Source: a virus. From it: a DNA stretch of 24,903 nucleotides. The stretch lies in the IMG/VR virus record IMGVR_UViG_3300045019_000155, positions 1 through 24,903 of that record. One strand, given 5' to 3'. Below, piece after piece: positions 15,827-21,422 of the stretch (position 1 is its first letter; every line of letters starts with the position of its first letter). The notes beneath the pieces were generated by a model. It did not search any database, was not told the DNA's origin, and saw only the letters and a program-made list of their open reading frames with translations. Position numbers and translations under genes: made by a program.

Positions 15827-16203
15827 TCTTCACCCTCGGCGAAAATCCTGACCATTCGGGCGACCCACGCCTGCCGTTTTGGCGGCATGGCCGCGACCAG
15901 CTCGACGATCTCCCGAAGGTCGCTCGTCACCCTCAGGCTGAGAGCGAGGGCGTCTTGCTCCCTTCCCAGTTCGCTTGGCGGAAAGAGGTCCACCGGGCTG
16001 ATCTTCAGCGCCTTGGCCATGTTGCAGAGGCGCGACGCCGATATCCGGTTGTGGCCGCGCTCGTACTTCTGGACCTGCTGGAAGGTGATGCCGACCGCAT
16101 CGCCGAGACCCGTCTGCGAAAGCCCTCTTGCCAAGCGGAAGGAGCGCAGGCGCGCGCCCACTTCCACGTCGACCGGATCTGGATTCAGGTTGTCCCCGCT
16201 CAT
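15823..16203 (-). CDS. XRE-family transcription regulator
   Basis: A 126-residue protein with a classic HTH_3 domain at about residues 16-72: VGARLRSFRLARGLSQTGLG, DAVGITFQQVQKYERGHNRI and SASRLCNMAKAL. A helical tail of about 50 residues ending MVRIFAEGEE follows. This two-part form is typical of alphaproteobacterial XRE regulators. I chose ATG 16203, which overlaps the stop of the nuclease gene (ATGA), over an Arg/Pro-rich upstream extension. It sits late in the early operon, not at the immunity region, so it is more likely a delayed-early or host-linked regulator than the lysogeny repressor. Confidence 0.85.
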   Translation of the reverse strand: MSGDNLNPDPVDVEVGARLRSFRLARGLSQTGLGDAVGITFQQVQKYERGHNRISASRLCNMAKALKISPVDLFPPSELGREQDALALSLRVTSDLREIVELVAAMPPKRQAWVARMVRIFAEGEE

Positions 16204-16622
16204 CGGGTTCCTCGCGAATAGTAGCCTCTGGAGAATTTCGGCAGGTCGATCGCATGACCCTGGCGCACGAGCTGGGCGGCGACGTCTCGCTGGCCGATCC
16301 AGCACTGCGCCACGATGCGGTCGTAGCTCTTCCCCCGGCGCTTGCAGACCAGCGTCTGGCCGGCGGTGATGTTGGCGAGCGCCCTGGTGGCCCGGAGGCC
16401 GCCAGGCGCATTCCGCTCAGGCGCGTCGATCCCCCAGAGGCGGATCTTGAGATTGCCGTCGCAGCGGAAGGTGTCGCCGTCGGTGATGCCGGGCGAGGCG
16501 CAGAGGATCAGGTTCTCCTGCGCAGTCGCAGGCTCGCTCAGTCCGAGCGTGACGACGGCGGCTCCGGCCATTGCGGCAAGCCTTGCGCCAGCCAAAATGC
16601 TGCTGGCTCGTAGAGCGTCCAC
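16200..16622 (-). CDS. Secreted staphylococcal nuclease-like protein
   Basis: A 140-residue thermonuclease (SNase fold) with an N-terminal export signal. From GTG 16622 the first 34 residues form a signal peptide ending ATAQ. The SNase motifs follow: DGDT at 48-51, RLWGIDAPE at 61-69 (catalytic Arg61 and Glu69) and YDR near 100-102 (Arg102). The domain is on the short side and ends soon after the C-terminal helix. An in-frame ATG at 16802 overlaps the O-like stop but would add a non-coding-looking segment. ATG 16571 would leave a signal without positive charge. The 5' part overlaps a 60-residue ORF in another frame. An exported nuclease could degrade competing or host-released DNA; this is inference. 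Confidence 0.75.
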   Translation of the reverse strand: MDALRASSILAGARLAAMAGAAVVTLGLSEPATAQENLILCASPGITDGDTFRCDGNLKIRLWGIDAPERNAPGGLRATRALANITAGQTLVCKRRGKSYDRIVAQCWIGQRDVAAQLVRQGHAIDLPKFSRGYYSRGTR

Positions 16623-16720
16623 ATCGGTTGCGGCGGGCCGGCTGGGAGCGGACGCACGATCTTGTTCGGATCCACGCTGTCCCTCTCGCAAAGCCAACAT
16701 GCCAAGTCCTTCACCATCAT
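16538..16720 (-). CDS. 60-residue Trp/Pro-rich early protein
   Basis: A short ORF with the best ribosome-binding site in the early operon: AAAGGAG six bases before the first of two ATG codons at 16720. The product begins MMVKDLACWLCERDSVDP, has Trp-rich segments (MWTLYEPAAFWLAQGL) and ends WPEPPSSRSD. There is no domain that I recognise. The two Cys (WLC and ACW) are not in a metal pattern. It overlaps the nuclease start by about 85 bp in another frame, so both could be translated from one message with the nuclease start reached by coupling. The gap 16721-16798 before it holds nothing else. Confidence 0.6.
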   Translation of the reverse strand: MMVKDLACWLCERDSVDPNKIVRPLPAGPPQPMWTLYEPAAFWLAQGLPQWPEPPSSRSD

Positions 16721-16798
16721 TTGGTTCTCCTTTCCAGCCCCACTTTAGCCGGACGTCAGGGCCGCTCAGGACGGCGCGGATCGCAGTCGTAGACCTGC

Positions 16799-17890
16799 TC
16801 ATGCGGCGATCCCCTCGACCTGCGCGGCCATCGTGGATGCTCCCGGCACGAGGTGCGGGGGAACGCGACAGCCGGGGCGGCCGGGCTCGGGGCCGAGGCG
16901 CGCATCCCAGCGCCCCTGGTCGGCCCAAAGGCTGATCGCGATTGCCCAGCGATCCTCGTCCCAGTCCGCACCAAGCTCGCCGGTCGCGGCAGTCGCCCAC
17001 TGCTCGAAGGTTCGATCCTTCAGCCACAGGTGCAGGCCTGGTCCGCCGGTGCGCTTCAGGTCGGGATCGGCCGCCAGGTAGGCGAGCAGCCCGGCAACGA
17101 TCGACGCGGGTTCGGCTACCAGCTTGGCTTTCCGCCACTCGGCCCAAGCCTTGGATTTCGATTTCGCTCGGCGACGCATCTCCGGCGTGGAGATTTCCCA
17201 CAGCTTGGCGAAGTCCGGGTCAGCCTCCCATGGCTGACCGGCAGGCGGCTTGGTCGCGCTCGGCGGAGCCGGTGCGACAGAGGCGTTAGCCTCTACTACT
17301 AATATCCCTGTCCCTGTCCCTGTCTCTTGGATGGCGTTTCCCGAGGGACATCGCGTCCCTGTCCCTGGGGACGCCGCTTCATGTCCCTGGGGACACGCGT
17401 CGATGTCCCTAGGGACATCTGCGGGACCAACGCTGTGTGTCCCCGCCAGATACTCCTCGAATGTCGGCAGCGGTTGGTCGGCGCCGGTTCGTTGGTTCTG
17501 CTTCTTGATCCGGGCGCATTCGGTCCGCCAGCGCTGCTGGAGCTTGCTCTCCCACGCCGTGCGAGCCTGCTCGGCGACGACCGGGTGATAGAGGCGTCCG
17601 TCCGAGCAGAGCACGAAGCCGCGGAGCGCGCCTGCCTTGTGCTTCTTGAAGGTCTTCACGTCCCGCCCTAGGCCGATCAGCCGCGTCAACACGGCGTCGT
17701 TGTCCGGGAGCGACGCCGCCGGGATCTGGTGCCAGGACGCCGCCCACAGGAGGAGAGCATACCAGCACGCTTCAGGTTCTTCCTCGCTGGCCAGATCGCT
17801 GTCGCGCAGGCGTGCGACGTGGAGCGGCATGAAGGGGAAGTCCTGAAGGTCGCAATCGACCGGGGTCATGGGTTCGGCAAGCACGGTCAC
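16799..17890 (-). CDS. O-like replication protein with DUF1376 domain
   Basis: A 363-residue replication protein. The first 110 or so residues are DUF1376 (PF07120): DCDLQDFPFMPLHVARLRDSD, EACWYALLLWAASWHQIPA and GFVLCSDGRLYHPVVAEQA. A Gly/Pro/Thr-rich linker follows (about 155-215), then a C-terminal helical part around STPEMRRRAKSKSKAWAEWR and LHLWLKDRTFEQW. DUF1376 proteins occur next to DnaB in phage early operons as origin-binding or helicase-loading factors. The start is GTG 17890, overlapping the DnaB stop (GTGA). The DNA for the linker holds regularly spaced palindromes (17338-17416) that look like an origin within the initiator gene, as in lambda O. Confidence 0.85.
   Translation of the reverse strand: MTVLAEPMTPVDCDLQDFPFMPLHVARLRDSDLASEEEPEACWYALLLWAASWHQIPAASLPDNDAVLTRLIGLGRDVKTFKKHKAGALRGFVLCSDGRLYHPVVAEQARTAWESKLQQRWRTECARIKKQNQRTGADQPLPTFEEYLAGTHSVGPADVPRDIDACPQGHEAASPGTGTRCPSGNAIQETGTGTGILVVEANASVAPAPPSATKPPAGQPWEADPDFAKLWEISTPEMRRRAKSKSKAWAEWRKAKLVAEPASIVAGLLAYLAADPDLKRTGGPGLHLWLKDRTFEQWATAATGELGADWDEDRWAIAISLWADQGRWDARLGPEPGRPGCRVPPHLVPGASTMAAQVEGIAA
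17338..17416. repeat. Palindromic iterons, candidate replication origin
   Basis: Three copies of the 12-bp palindrome GTCCC-TR-GGGAC sit at 17361-17372, 17383-17394 and 17405-17416, at an exact 22-bp period. A degenerate copy, TTCCC-GA-GGGAC, lies at 17338-17349. The last perfect copy extends to the 16-bp palindrome ATGTCCCTAGGGACAT (17403-17418). Three tandem TCCCTG hexamers (17305-17322) and a short A/T-richer patch (17287-17306) lie on the minus-strand downstream side. The array is inside the linker-coding part of the O-like gene. Lambda, with four iterons inside gene O, is the precedent. Confidence 0.65.
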
Positions 17891-19299
17891 GACTGCCAGC
17901 TCCTAACGGCCGACGAAGCGATGTCGCAGTAGGTCAGCACCTCGCCCAATGGGCCGTGGCTGTTCTTCCCCACTATCCAATACATCTTTCTCTCGACGGC
18001 CTTCAGTTTTTGAAGGCGTTCACACTCCTGATCGAAGGTCTCCCCGTCGGCCGGCGGGCGCAGGTAGTACTCCGGGCGGTAGATGAAGATGACCTGGCGG
18101 GCGTCCTCCTCAAGCTCGCCGGCTTGGCGCAGGTCACTGAGCTGCGGGCGTTTGTCCTCGCGGCTCTCGACGCCCCGGTTGAGCTGTACGAGCCCGACAA
18201 CGGGCACGCCGAGCCGCTTGGCCATTTCGCCGACCTGCCCGGAGATGTCCGCCACCTCTGCGTGACGCGCGCCGCGCCGGTCGACGGGAGGGCGGACCTT
18301 TCCAAGGTGGTCGATGATCACGGGGCCTGGGCGAATGCCTTGGTTCCGCCAGCGGCGATGCTGCCTGCGGGCAGCCGCCTCCATCTGGGCGACGGTCAGG
18401 CCTGGCCGAACGTCCGTGAAGAGAGGCCACGCCTCGACGGTGTTGGTCGCCGCATCCAAGCGCGCCCATTGCTGCGGGTGCAGCATGTTCCGGCGAGCCA
18501 GATCGGGAGTCGGGTTGCAGCGCTCGGAGAACGCGCCGTAGTGCGACGCCTCCCGATCAAACGCCACGTCGGCCGCCAGGCGCATCCCGAGCGGGTCCGC
18601 ATCCATCTCCAGGGAGAAGAAGCAAACGCCCAGACCCTGGGACGCATTAGCCCTGGCGATGGTGAGGCCAGCGACCGTTTTCCCCATGCCCGTGCGTGCA
18701 GCGACCCAGGTCGCTTCACCCGCATTGAGCCCGCCCACGAACTCGTCGACCTCGCGAACACCCAAGGGGAACGCGATGGCGCCGGATCGACGGCGCGTAT
18801 TGGCGATGGCGTTGCGAACCATGTCGCCGGCCGAGATCCACTTCTCGGCGATCGTGGACGACTTGGCGACCTCGGCAGCGCCAGCCTCCAGCTCGCTCAG
18901 CAGATCGACGTAGCTGCCGCTCGCGGTGTCTTTGATCTTGGGGGAAAGGCCGTCGAGCACGCCAAGCAGAGCGCGTCGGCCCGCTCGGTCTGCGACGGCC
19001 TCGATGTGATCGCCCACGCCGAAGGTGCTCGCTCGATCCCACAGGGACCAGAGCTGATCGTAGCCGCCCCACGCCTTGAAGCCGGCGTGCTCCCCCAGGC
19101 GGTCGCGAACGATCTCCGGCGTTGGCGCGCCGCCAGAGCGAACGACCTTGATGACCGCGGCCCAGATATCTCCGTGGACGGGATCTCCGAAGTGCTCCGG
19201 CTGAAGGCGCTCAATGGCCGCCTCGCACTCGCCGGGCGCGTACATCGTCGCGGCGATCACCGCGACTTCGCTCTCGAAACTGAAGAGGCTGCTCTCCAT
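17887..19299 (-). CDS. dnaB: Replicative DNA helicase, DnaB family
   Basis: A 470-residue DnaB-type hexameric helicase that would unwind the phage replication fork. The N-terminal domain begins SFESEVAVIAATMY (residues 7-20), the region that binds primase and loaders. A linker follows to about residue 175, then the RecA-like motor: Walker A ARTGMGKT at 201-208, FFSLEMDADPLGMRLAADV for the DnaB motif, Walker B VIIDHLG, LVQLNRGVESR, and SDLRQAGELEEDARQVIFIY near the C-terminus. The length is typical. It starts at ATG 19299 sharing a base with the upstream stop (TGATG) and overlaps the O-like gene by GTGA, so helicase and loader are coupled. Confidence 0.93.
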   Translation of the reverse strand: MESSLFSFESEVAVIAATMYAPGECEAAIERLQPEHFGDPVHGDIWAAVIKVVRSGGAPTPEIVRDRLGEHAGFKAWGGYDQLWSLWDRASTFGVGDHIEAVADRAGRRALLGVLDGLSPKIKDTASGSYVDLLSELEAGAAEVAKSSTIAEKWISAGDMVRNAIANTRRRSGAIAFPLGVREVDEFVGGLNAGEATWVAARTGMGKTVAGLTIARANASQGLGVCFFSLEMDADPLGMRLAADVAFDREASHYGAFSERCNPTPDLARRNMLHPQQWARLDAATNTVEAWPLFTDVRPGLTVAQMEAAARRQHRRWRNQGIRPGPVIIDHLGKVRPPVDRRGARHAEVADISGQVGEMAKRLGVPVVGLVQLNRGVESREDKRPQLSDLRQAGELEEDARQVIFIYRPEYYLRPPADGETFDQECERLQKLKAVERKMYWIVGKNSHGPLGEVLTYCDIASSAVRSWQS

Positions 19300-20318: not shown

Positions 20319-20558
20319 TCATTTCCGTTCCCCTTCTCCGGAAGCGATTGGGAAGAAGTCCGCAGGGCCGAGATCAAGTCCGGAAACGGCGGCATAACGC
20401 ATGAGTTCAACCTGCCTCTTTGCAGGTACGAGGCCACCCGTTCCGCCCCGACAGCGCGGATGTGACCACCTGAGAACCGCGCTTCGATCAATGCCGAGAG
20501 CGCGCGCCACCTTAGCGACGCCGCCGCAACGCTGAATAACCCGGGATGCTGGTTCCAT
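20319..20558 (-). CDS. Cro-like repressor, first gene of the early operon
   Basis: A 79-residue HTH protein of the small Cro/carph-isopro type: MEPASRVIQRCGGVAKVARA, LGIDRSAVLRWSHPRCRGGT, then VPAKRQVELMRYAAVSGLDL and GPADFFP. The C-G-G-x-x-x-V-A-x-x-L and RSAVxRW segments form the predicted HTH. I favour ATG 20558 because the best leftward -10 (TATACA, complement of 20563-20568) would put the transcription start at or next to this ATG, giving a leaderless message; no Shine-Dalgarno is visible. ATG 20582 would add eight residues but lie in the promoter spacer. It diverges from the repressor gene across the shared operator. Confidence 0.75.
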   Translation of the reverse strand: MEPASRVIQRCGGVAKVARALGIDRSAVLRWSHPRCRGGTGGLVPAKRQVELMRYAAVSGLDLGPADFFPIASGEGERK

Positions 20559-20562
20559 GCGG

Positions 20563-20593
20563 TGTATATGCGTTTCTAGCATAGAATCGTCAA
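20563..20593 (-). promoter_or_regulatory. Leftward early promoter with 19-bp operator
   Basis: Reading leftward: -35 TTGACG (complement of 20588-20593) and -10 TATACA (complement of 20563-20568), 19 bases apart. The spacer is filled by an operator at 20566-20584, with arms TATGC and GCATA around 7-9 bases. The same operator, again directly after a TTGACG, occurs at 21432-21450. A second small palindrome, TTCTA-GCA-TAGAA, lies at 20574-20586. Position between the Cro-like and repressor genes makes this the likely immunity switch. Confidence 0.6.
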
Positions 20594-20633
20594 GCGCTGA
20601 CTGGTCGTGTGCCGTTTTCTCTATGGCGCCAAG

Positions 20634-21422
20634 ATGCGCAATGCGATTGATGGGTTTATGGATCGCTTCGACAACATCAGCCCCGCGCTGCTCAAGGAGC
20701 AGCTTGGGAAGTATGGCCGATCGCAGGCGGGTCTCGCCCGGCACCTTGGCATCGACACGAGTGCAGTTAACCGCATCGTCAACGGCAAAAGGCAGATCAA
20801 GGCGGCAGAGCTAAAGCCAATTCACGATTACCTTGAGCTGACTGATACGTCGGGCGTGTCGGAAGATGAATATATATCTTCAGCTCAGATGAAAAATGAA
20901 GGCGCCCAGCGCATTATGCACATTGCGCGCCACGCCATAGATCGGCCGTTGAGAGAATTTATCCTAGAATCTTGGGCGAATGTATTTTCCATACTTCGTG
21001 GATATCTTAATTCGGAGGTCAATATATCCCCACCAGATGCCACTGAAGACTTCTGGAGGTTGGCCGAGGCCAATCCCGAGGTGCTCGTTCTTATGGGGCT
21101 AGGGAAGGGAATCGTTGATGGGCGCACTGCGGCGCAGCTTCGCTCGCTTGATCGAGCTGCGGAGCGAGCGATTGCCCTCGACCACGTGACATTTGAGTCT
21201 GATCCCGAGGCTCGCGCCGCATTAAAGGAATACCTCGCTATGGACGAAGAGGTGGCTGAGGTTTCTGCTCGGACCCTGCGGTCGCGACTCGCCGTGCAAG
21301 GGGCCATGCTCAGCTTTGTTCTTTCGGGCGATAAGGACGGGTTGAAGTCTGCTCTCAGTGAGATGATTGACGTGCTCAAGCCGATCGTAGATCGCATGGA
21401 TGGCAATCCCCCGCACAGTTAA
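20634..21422 (+). CDS. Phage repressor-like protein, HTH without S24 peptidase
   Basis: A 262-residue protein if read from ATG 20634; GTG 20607 and ATG 20658 are alternatives and none has a good Shine-Dalgarno. The N-terminal XRE-type HTH is clear: KEQLGKYGRSQAGLARHLGI, DTSAVNRIVNGKRQIKAAEL. The remaining 190 residues are helical and Glu/Asp/Leu-rich, with no S24/LexA Ser-Lys self-cleavage motifs, so induction would not follow the lambda RecA route. Placement, divergent from the Cro-like gene across an operator, supports a lysogeny repressor. The coding sequence is visibly richer in A+T than its neighbours (especially 20860-21030), suggesting separate acquisition. Confidence 0.75.
   Translation: MRNAIDGFMDRFDNISPALLKEQLGKYGRSQAGLARHLGIDTSAVNRIVNGKRQIKAAELKPIHDYLELTDTSGVSEDEYISSAQMKNEGAQRIMHIARHAIDRPLREFILESWANVFSILRGYLNSEVNISPPDATEDFWRLAEANPEVLVLMGLGKGIVDGRTAAQLRSLDRAAERAIALDHVTFESDPEARAALKEYLAMDEEVAEVSARTLRSRLAVQGAMLSFVLSGDKDGLKSALSEMIDVLKPIVDRMDGNPPHS

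What the first reader, a model, noticed from the sequence alone, without database searches (positions are those of the whole stretch)
17305..17418. Candidate lambda-style origin: 22-bp-spaced palindromes inside the O-like gene
Seen: three copies of GTCCC-TR-GGGAC begin at 17361, 17383 and 17405, exactly 22 bp (about two helical turns) apart. A weaker copy begins at 17338, and three tandem TCCCTG hexamers lie nearby at 17305-17322. All fall within the low-complexity linker of the DUF1376 gene next to dnaB. Known: lambda has four iterons inside gene O. Inferred: this is the phage origin and the DUF1376 domain binds it. I know of no described iteron set for DUF1376 replication proteins.
Basis: partly seen in the sequence, partly recalled or inferred. 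Interest (0 to 1): 0.75.

Follow-up and report, generated by a model that had tools for sequence, protein, structure and literature searches.

The report
Phage replication origin inside DUF1376 gene
A row of evenly spaced palindromes inside a phage replication gene is very probably the phage's replication origin, and the same layout recurs in hundreds of related phages, where the palindrome's sequence changes in step with one short helix of the protein, which suggests how such initiators recognise their own origin.

Summary
Three exact GTCCC-N2-GGGAC palindromes (0.07 expected) and a degenerate fourth lie 22, 22 and 23 bp apart in the linker of a DUF1376 protein gene. Each exact copy is in a different reading frame, so the constraint is on DNA.

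Scanning 2.9 million viral contigs for the palindrome pair alone gave 92 loci, 79 inside DUF1376 genes; a same-composition control gave 8 loci, none inside. In 65 non-redundant prophage genes chosen by protein only, the linker shows 22-24 bp periodicity (z 14, 13, 8) and 178 palindromes against 52 expected; a purine tract and an AT peak follow. This is the plan of the lambda origin inside gene O.

New here: the palindrome comes in many lineage-specific sequences, and its class tracks residues 119-135, the basic end of a long helix behind the winged-helix core. A profile of that segment from GTCAC-class proteins finds 36 proteins picked by GTCAC palindromes alone, nearly all with remote DUF1376 cores.

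Best reading: an intragenic iteron origin, bound by the DUF1376 protein through that helix. Binding and origin activity are inferred, not shown.

The parts
16799..17890 (-). Gene of the candidate initiator (363 aa): winged-helix DUF1376 core, long helix with basic end, disordered linker that contains the array, helical C-terminal part
   Evidence: PF07120 5e-6; phrog_22470 6.7e-38; model
17567..17836 (-). Stretch matching Pfam DUF1376 (residues 19-108), predicted winged helix
   Evidence: model pLDDT 94.6; best structural neighbours are winged helices of RepA_N initiators, Z 4.4-5.0
17486..17536 (-). Codons 119-135: basic end of helix 4, proposed reader of the palindromes (QRWRTECARIKKQNQRT)
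   Evidence: class covariation:
17405..17416 (.). Iteron 1, GTCCCTAGGGAC
17383..17394 (.). Iteron 2, GTCCCTGGGGAC
17361..17372 (.). Iteron 3, GTCCCTGGGGAC
17338..17349 (.). Iteron 4 (degenerate, TTCCCGAGGGAC); the copy next to the purine tract ends in GGGAAA in many GTCCC-class relatives too
17326..17331 (-). Junction word TCCAAG between iterons and purine tract, common in relatives
   Evidence: alignment of 52 linkers anchored on this word
17303..17329 (-). Purine-rich tract with GGGACA hexamers on the gene strand
17293..17306 (-). Short AT-rich stretch GATATTAGTAGTAG, proposed melting site
   Evidence: AT 0.60 in 17291-17310, neighbours 0.35-0.40; group AT peak
16919..17218 (-). Predicted helical C-terminal part (residues 225-324), presumed partner-binding part
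   Evidence: model (moderate to low confidence); analogy to O-like C-terminal halves of relatives
17887..19299 (-). DnaB-type replicative helicase, the presumed client
   Evidence: (PF03796 9.7e-53)

Best explanation
The array is the core of an intragenic phage replication origin of the lambda type. Dimers of the DUF1376 protein bind the four palindromic iterons, which lie about two helical turns apart on one face of the DNA. The bound complex opens the purine-rich/AT-rich stretch next to iteron 4, where the phage's own DnaB helicase is loaded. Sequence recognition is by the basic end of helix 4 (residues 119-135) that follows the winged-helix core; this helix and the iterons lie next to each other in the gene and change together. 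Shown: the layout, its conservation and DNA-level constraint, its predominant location in DUF1376 genes for three of the patterns scanned (GTCCC pair, TTCCG pair, GGGACA hexamers), and the covariation. Inferred: binding, dimerisation, melting, helicase loading and origin activity.
For: Palindromes real and clustered. The pair pattern alone hits 92 viral loci, 79 in DUF1376 ORFs, mostly at 23 or 22 bp; control palindrome 0 of 8; TTCCG class 38 of 50. The hexamer pattern alone: 47 of 52 in DUF1376 genes, in three reading frames. Protein-selected prophage set: periodicity 22/23/24 bp with z 14/11/10 and 14/13/8 on re-run; three control stretches of the same genes show no peak at 22-23 and no palindrome excess. 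Purine tract of at least 21/24 in 65 of 76 genes against 6 of 76 shuffles, then AT 0.64 against gene mean 0.36. Palindrome copies spread over all frames, 49/53/37. The lambda yardstick has iterons 20, 24 and 23 bp apart followed by AT 0.85, purine 0.90. Relatives share C-terminal halves with PHROG 'replication initiation O-like' families. Helix 119-135: class information share 0.31 against 0.01-0.10 elsewhere in the domain; same-class identity 0.54-0.77 against 0.22-0.33 for different class at core identity of 0.45 and above; module profile.
Against: No replication or binding data. GC skew shows no inflection here. The AT-rich stretch of the window is short. The basic-helix codons sit next to the array, so part of the covariation may be joint inheritance. 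The independent-pairs test on supported branches is too small to decide (median p 0.25). DnaB or a close DnaC-like neighbour was found near only 16 of 80 prophage genes, by a search reaching close relatives only.
Confidence: 0.83

Rival explanations
1. The palindromes are operators: a repressor (Cro/CI type) or the DUF1376 protein itself binds them to control transcription of the early operon, without an origin role.
For: Palindromic, dimer-type sites; Cro-like and CI-like genes at 20319-20744 and 20607-21422; an initiator may also autoregulate.
Against: No exact copy lies elsewhere in the window; sites sit deep inside the coding sequence, in an array phased at 22-24 bp followed by a purine/AT tract, in genes of many lineages; class tracks the DUF1376 protein's own helix.
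Confidence: 0.06
2. The element works as RNA: the palindromes form hairpins in the mRNA that control translation or termination.
For: The transcript folds better than shuffles (z -4.3).
Against: Arrays of palindromes fold by construction. The 2-nt centres are too short for hairpin loops, so the predicted fold pairs neighbouring copies. RNA structure gives no reason for fixed 22-24 bp phasing nor for tracking a protein helix.
Confidence: 0.03
3. The iterons are the origin, but the winged helix (or another protein) reads them; helix 119-135 covaries only because its codons are inherited together with the adjacent array.
For: Direct adjacency in DNA; identity drops together after the core in class-switched pairs; related winged-helix initiators read DNA with the winged helix (PMC5703833).
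Against: The recognition-helix segment 73-90 carries almost no class information (share 0.04) and has equal identity in same- and different-class pairs. The GTCAC-class segment recurs with remote cores while its palindrome stays the same. Among ECARIKK-type helices, all 59 genes with Q or D at residue 133 and exact palindromes have GTCCC, while GTCAC occurs only with E or V.
Confidence: 0.25
4. Low-complexity coding repeat: the repeats are maintained as a protein linker (GT/GQ repeats) and the DNA repeats are a by-product.
For: The region encodes a disordered linker (pLDDT about 50-60, residues 155-220).
Against: Palindromes occur in all three frames (49/53/37), hexamers as GQ, GT or DR, and 22 and 23 are not multiples of 3; codon-period controls peak at multiples of 3 instead.
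Confidence: 0.01

Closest known systems
Phage lambda ori / O protein (phage replication initiation O)
   Same: Four inverted-repeat iterons inside the initiator gene, 20-24 bp apart, followed by a purine-rich AT-rich tract (PMC7466680); helicase step nearby; some DUF1376 proteins have C-terminal halves related to O-like PHROGs
   Different: N-terminal domain is DUF1376, not an O N-terminal domain by Pfam/PHROG scan; iterons are 12-14 bp palindromes with a 2-bp centre instead of 18-19 bp; palindrome sequence differs by lineage; purine tract with GGGACA-type repeats in GC-rich DNA; the phage carries its own DnaB instead of a P-type loader
RepA_N plasmid initiators (pSK41/pTZ2162 RepA)
   Same: Winged-helix N-terminal domain, four binding boxes in the middle of the rep gene, origin DNA encodes a linker (PMC5703833); the best structural neighbours of the model (4pql, 5kbj, 4pt7, 4pta; Z 4.4-5.0)
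   Different: Weak structural match only, no sequence match to PF06970 in the Pfam scan; binding there is by the winged helix; boxes converge on A tracts
DUF1376 / YdaU (PF07120), incl. YdaU of E. coli Rac prophage
   Same: Same Pfam domain; Rac ydaU also has three TGTTNNAACA palindromes and a purine/AT tract in its linker
   Different: Function of the family is listed as unknown; no iteron set found in the open-access papers searched

Membership tests
DUF1376 (PF07120) | Match to the Pfam model | tested here: inconclusive
   27.2 bits, E 5e-6, under the gathering score of 30.1; phrog_22470 replication protein 6.7e-38 and Pfam-positive relatives make membership likely
Lambda-type intragenic iteron origin | Several inverted-repeat iterons inside the initiator gene at about two helical turns | tested here: met
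Lambda-type intragenic iteron origin | AT-rich unwinding tract next to the iterons | tested here: met
   group AT peak 0.64 against 0.36 after the purine tract; short in the window itself
Lambda-type intragenic iteron origin | Initiator binds iterons and the site drives replication | not testable with these tools
   needs binding and replication assays
Phage O protein family | O-type N-terminal DNA-binding domain | tested here: not met
   N-terminal part hits DUF1376 and phrog_22470/3992, no O-like model
Phage O protein family | O-like C-terminal half | tested here: inconclusive
   no hit in the window protein; hits in relatives phi297 and YdaU
RepA_N plasmid initiators | RepA_N domain by sequence | tested here: not met
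   no PF06970 hit at E 0.01
RepA_N plasmid initiators | RepA_N-type winged helix by structure | tested here: inconclusive
   Z 5.0, rmsd 3.3 over 81 residues; below the level that separates fold relatives

The most novel reading that the evidence does not exclude
Phage initiators of different core families carry an exchangeable reading segment: a short basic helix, somewhat like the basic region of bZIP factors, encoded directly beside the palindromic iterons it reads. Segment and iterons form one DNA cassette that is swapped or evolves as a unit, so a phage can change origin specificity in one recombination step.
Probability: 0.5. Interest if true: 0.85.

Novelty: new variant of a known kind. 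Interest (0 to 1): 0.72.

Why it matters
DUF1376 is a common phage domain of unknown function. The data give it a likely job (origin-binding initiator), give a way to find origins in many temperate phages from sequence alone, and predict the site of oriJ in the Rac prophage of E. coli K-12, inside ydaU. They also offer a natural series of matched helix/site pairs, from closely related proteins, with which the recognition code of an initiator can be tested by swaps of 17 residues.

Tried and rejected
G-quadruplex reading of (GGGACA)n: rejected as the general role, since the window and others have only three GGG runs and some lineages have pentamers or no G runs. GGGACA hexamer as the universal element: replaced by 'purine tract', as tandem GGGANR hexamers are missing in 28 of 80 protein-selected genes. 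A palindrome-pair count with one fixed arm and gap on the hexamer-selected set gave little, because palindrome centres differ between lineages; direct autocorrelation was used instead. Independent-pairs test on the core tree: undecided. Parsimony asks for 39 class changes on a poorly resolved core tree; not used as a count of events. Structure searches gave no match with E under 0.001 in the PDB. GTCAC palindromes are not specific to PHROG 22470-type proteins: only 5 of 120 loci; 35 others are YdaU-type DUF1376 and 51 another initiator-like family. GC skew as origin signal: nothing at the site. Paper searches for DUF1376, ydaU and oriJ found no description of iterons; subscription journals are mostly not covered.

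Full report
Observation. Exact matches: 3 in the window, 0.07 expected, none of 100 shuffles reaches 3. The gene (16799-17890, minus strand) gives a 363-residue protein; the neighbour 17887-19299 is a DnaB helicase. In gene direction the order is: winged-helix core, long helix, four palindromes at offsets 474, 496, 518 and 541, TCCAAG, purine tract AAGAGACAGGGACAGGGACAGGGATA, short AT-rich stretch. The three exact copies are in three different reading frames.

Is it conserved, and where? Three tests were chosen so that each selects loci by a different criterion. (a) By palindrome: GTCCCNNGGGAC twice, 20-26 bp apart, in all of IMG/VR gave 92 loci; 79 lie in ORFs matching a profile of the DUF1376 region, plus L061, a cut gene of the same type by inspection; intervals are mostly 23 bp (93) or 22 bp (16). 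The control GACCCNNGGGTC gave 8 loci, none in such an ORF; TTCCGNCGGAA gave 50, of which 38 are. (b) By purine hexamers: 52 loci, 47 in DUF1376 ORFs, with the hexamers read in frame 2 (31), 0 (15) or 1 (1), and with palindromes of many other sequences in front. (c) By protein alone: 80 prophage loci in GTDB genomes, nearest ones in Sphingomonadales and Caulobacteraceae at 77-81% identity. In 65 non-redundant members with a clear purine tract, the 140 bp before the tract show direct self-similarity at 22, 23 and 24 bp (z 14, 11, 10; 14, 13, 8 in the re-run), lesser peaks at 11-12, 33 and 45, and 178 perfect palindromes against 52 expected. Control stretches from the same genes have no peak at 22-23 and no palindrome excess; their peaks fall mostly at multiples of three, as expected from codons. 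AT content rises to 0.64 in the 10 bp after the tract, gene mean 0.36.

Comparison with lambda. The annotated lambda iterons start at 435, 455, 479 and 502 of L246 (spacing 20, 24, 23), and the 20 bp from 540 have AT 0.85 and purine 0.90. Lambda iterons are imperfect inverted repeats bound by O, the AT-rich tract is needed for unwinding, and the whole lies in gene O (PMC7466680). The layout here is the same. A second precedent is pSK41 Rep, with four boxes in the rep gene and an ori-encoded linker (PMC5703833). The model of the window protein's N-terminal 138 residues is confident (pLDDT 94.6) and its nearest solved neighbours are winged helices of RepA_N initiators, but at Z 4.4-5.0 only. The linker is predicted disordered. 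C-terminal halves of the relatives phi297 and YdaU match 'replication initiation O-like' PHROGs; the window's own does not.

What reads the palindromes? Half-sites fall into classes (GTCCC, GTCAC, TTCCG, CTGT, GATCG/TCCCG, TGAAAC and others). In the window's numbering, columns 119-135 carry most of the class information (share 0.31 of column entropy; 0.01-0.10 in all other parts of the domain, 0.04 in the presumed recognition helix 73-90; 0.11 in the linker start 136-150). Pairs of the same class are 54-77% identical there, pairs of different class 22-33%, at core identity from 45 to 90%; H1 and the recognition helix show no such difference. The same-class figure is dominated by GTCCC; for the other classes alone it is 37-51% at core identity 45-90%. 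L164 and L195 are 94% identical in the core, but 12% in this helix, with TTCCG and GTCCC palindromes. L171 and L097 agree on both sides (about 0.8) and differ over the array. Within ECARIKK-type helices, all 59 genes with Q or D at 133 and exact palindromes have GTCCC; GTCAC is seen only with E (6) or V (1), E also with GTCCC (5) and GTCGC (1).

Does the helix follow the palindrome across cores? A GTCAC scan gave at least 120 loci at 20-25 bp, mostly not in PHROG 22470-type proteins. Thirty-five lie in canonical DUF1376 (YdaU-type) proteins, 51 in another family with weak hits to 'replication initiation protein' PHROGs. A profile of about 50 residues from GTCAC-class members of the window's family finds 36 of the scan's proteins at E 1e-12 to about 1e-6 and, in its own family, two more GTCAC-class sequences, three TGAAAC-class and one unclassed, but none of 94 GTCCC or 16 TTCCG members at E 0.01. 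This is hard to explain by descent of the core. It does not separate function from joint transfer of adjacent DNA, except that the palindrome stayed while the segment diverged. The likeness to a bZIP basic region (NEAERxRR-type sequence, GTCA/TGAC half-sites) is an impression from reading, untested.

Mechanism. Shown: layout, phasing, DNA-level constraint, location, covariation. Inferred: dimer binding per palindrome, cooperative complex, opening at the purine/AT tract, DnaB loading. The interval of 22-24 bp keeps sites roughly on one face of the helix.

Limits. Classes come from word counts and 23 of 179 genes stayed unclassed. The core tree is short and poorly resolved; the sign test on supported branches is undecided. 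Shuffle z-scores treat loci as independent after removal of near-copies only. The window is a 24.9 kb fragment without other origin signals.

Side result. E. coli K-12 ydaU has TGTTNNAACA at L165 3012, 3045 and 3068 (0.21 expected in 7 kb), then an AT-rich purine tract to about 3133, i.e. NC_000913.3 1421511-1421632. Rac has an active origin, oriJ (PMC3945230); its exact place was not found in the papers at hand. The prediction is that this is oriJ.

Noticed in passing
L165 3012-3133 (NC_000913.3 1421511-1421632): Three TGTTNNAACA palindromes (33 and 23 bp apart) and a purine/AT tract inside ydaU of the Rac prophage: candidate site of oriJ. Also kept in relatives L481 and L490.
   Followed up: partly
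L334, L302, L303 and about 48 further loci: GTCAC..GTGAC arrays at about 22-24 bp inside another initiator-like family (weak hits to phrog_2447/3926).
   Followed up: partly
L104 5214-5330, L036 12100-12290: GTCCC palindromes with GTCAC-type repeats nearby, outside any DUF1376 ORF, in short or intergenic stretches; meaning unknown.
   Followed up: no
L045 6448-6486: Perfect tandem GTCCCTGGGGACG repeats every 13 bp, not in a DUF1376 gene.
   Followed up: no
L005 3001-3591: A DUF1376 domain followed directly by what reads like an HNH-type endonuclease sequence in place of linker and array (by eye).
   Followed up: no
window 16200-17201 (-): ORF overlapping the initiator gene's 3' part in another frame; its C-terminal part matches staphylococcal nuclease (PF00565, 1.4e-7), so the real gene is probably the shorter downstream part.
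   Followed up: no
window 17293-17304 (-): TAGTAGTAG next to the purine tract resembles DnaA-trio repeats; some relatives have GATGATGAT-like runs there (L027, L102, L169).
   Followed up: no
window 17887-19299 and L011 3510-4925: Gene order differs: dnaB precedes the DUF1376 gene in the window but follows it in phi297; Magia has no annotated dnaB next door.
   Followed up: partly
L490, L494, L496-L501: ydaU variants with about 340 bp extra sequence starting directly after the proposed origin tract; in L490 the frame stays open.
   Followed up: no
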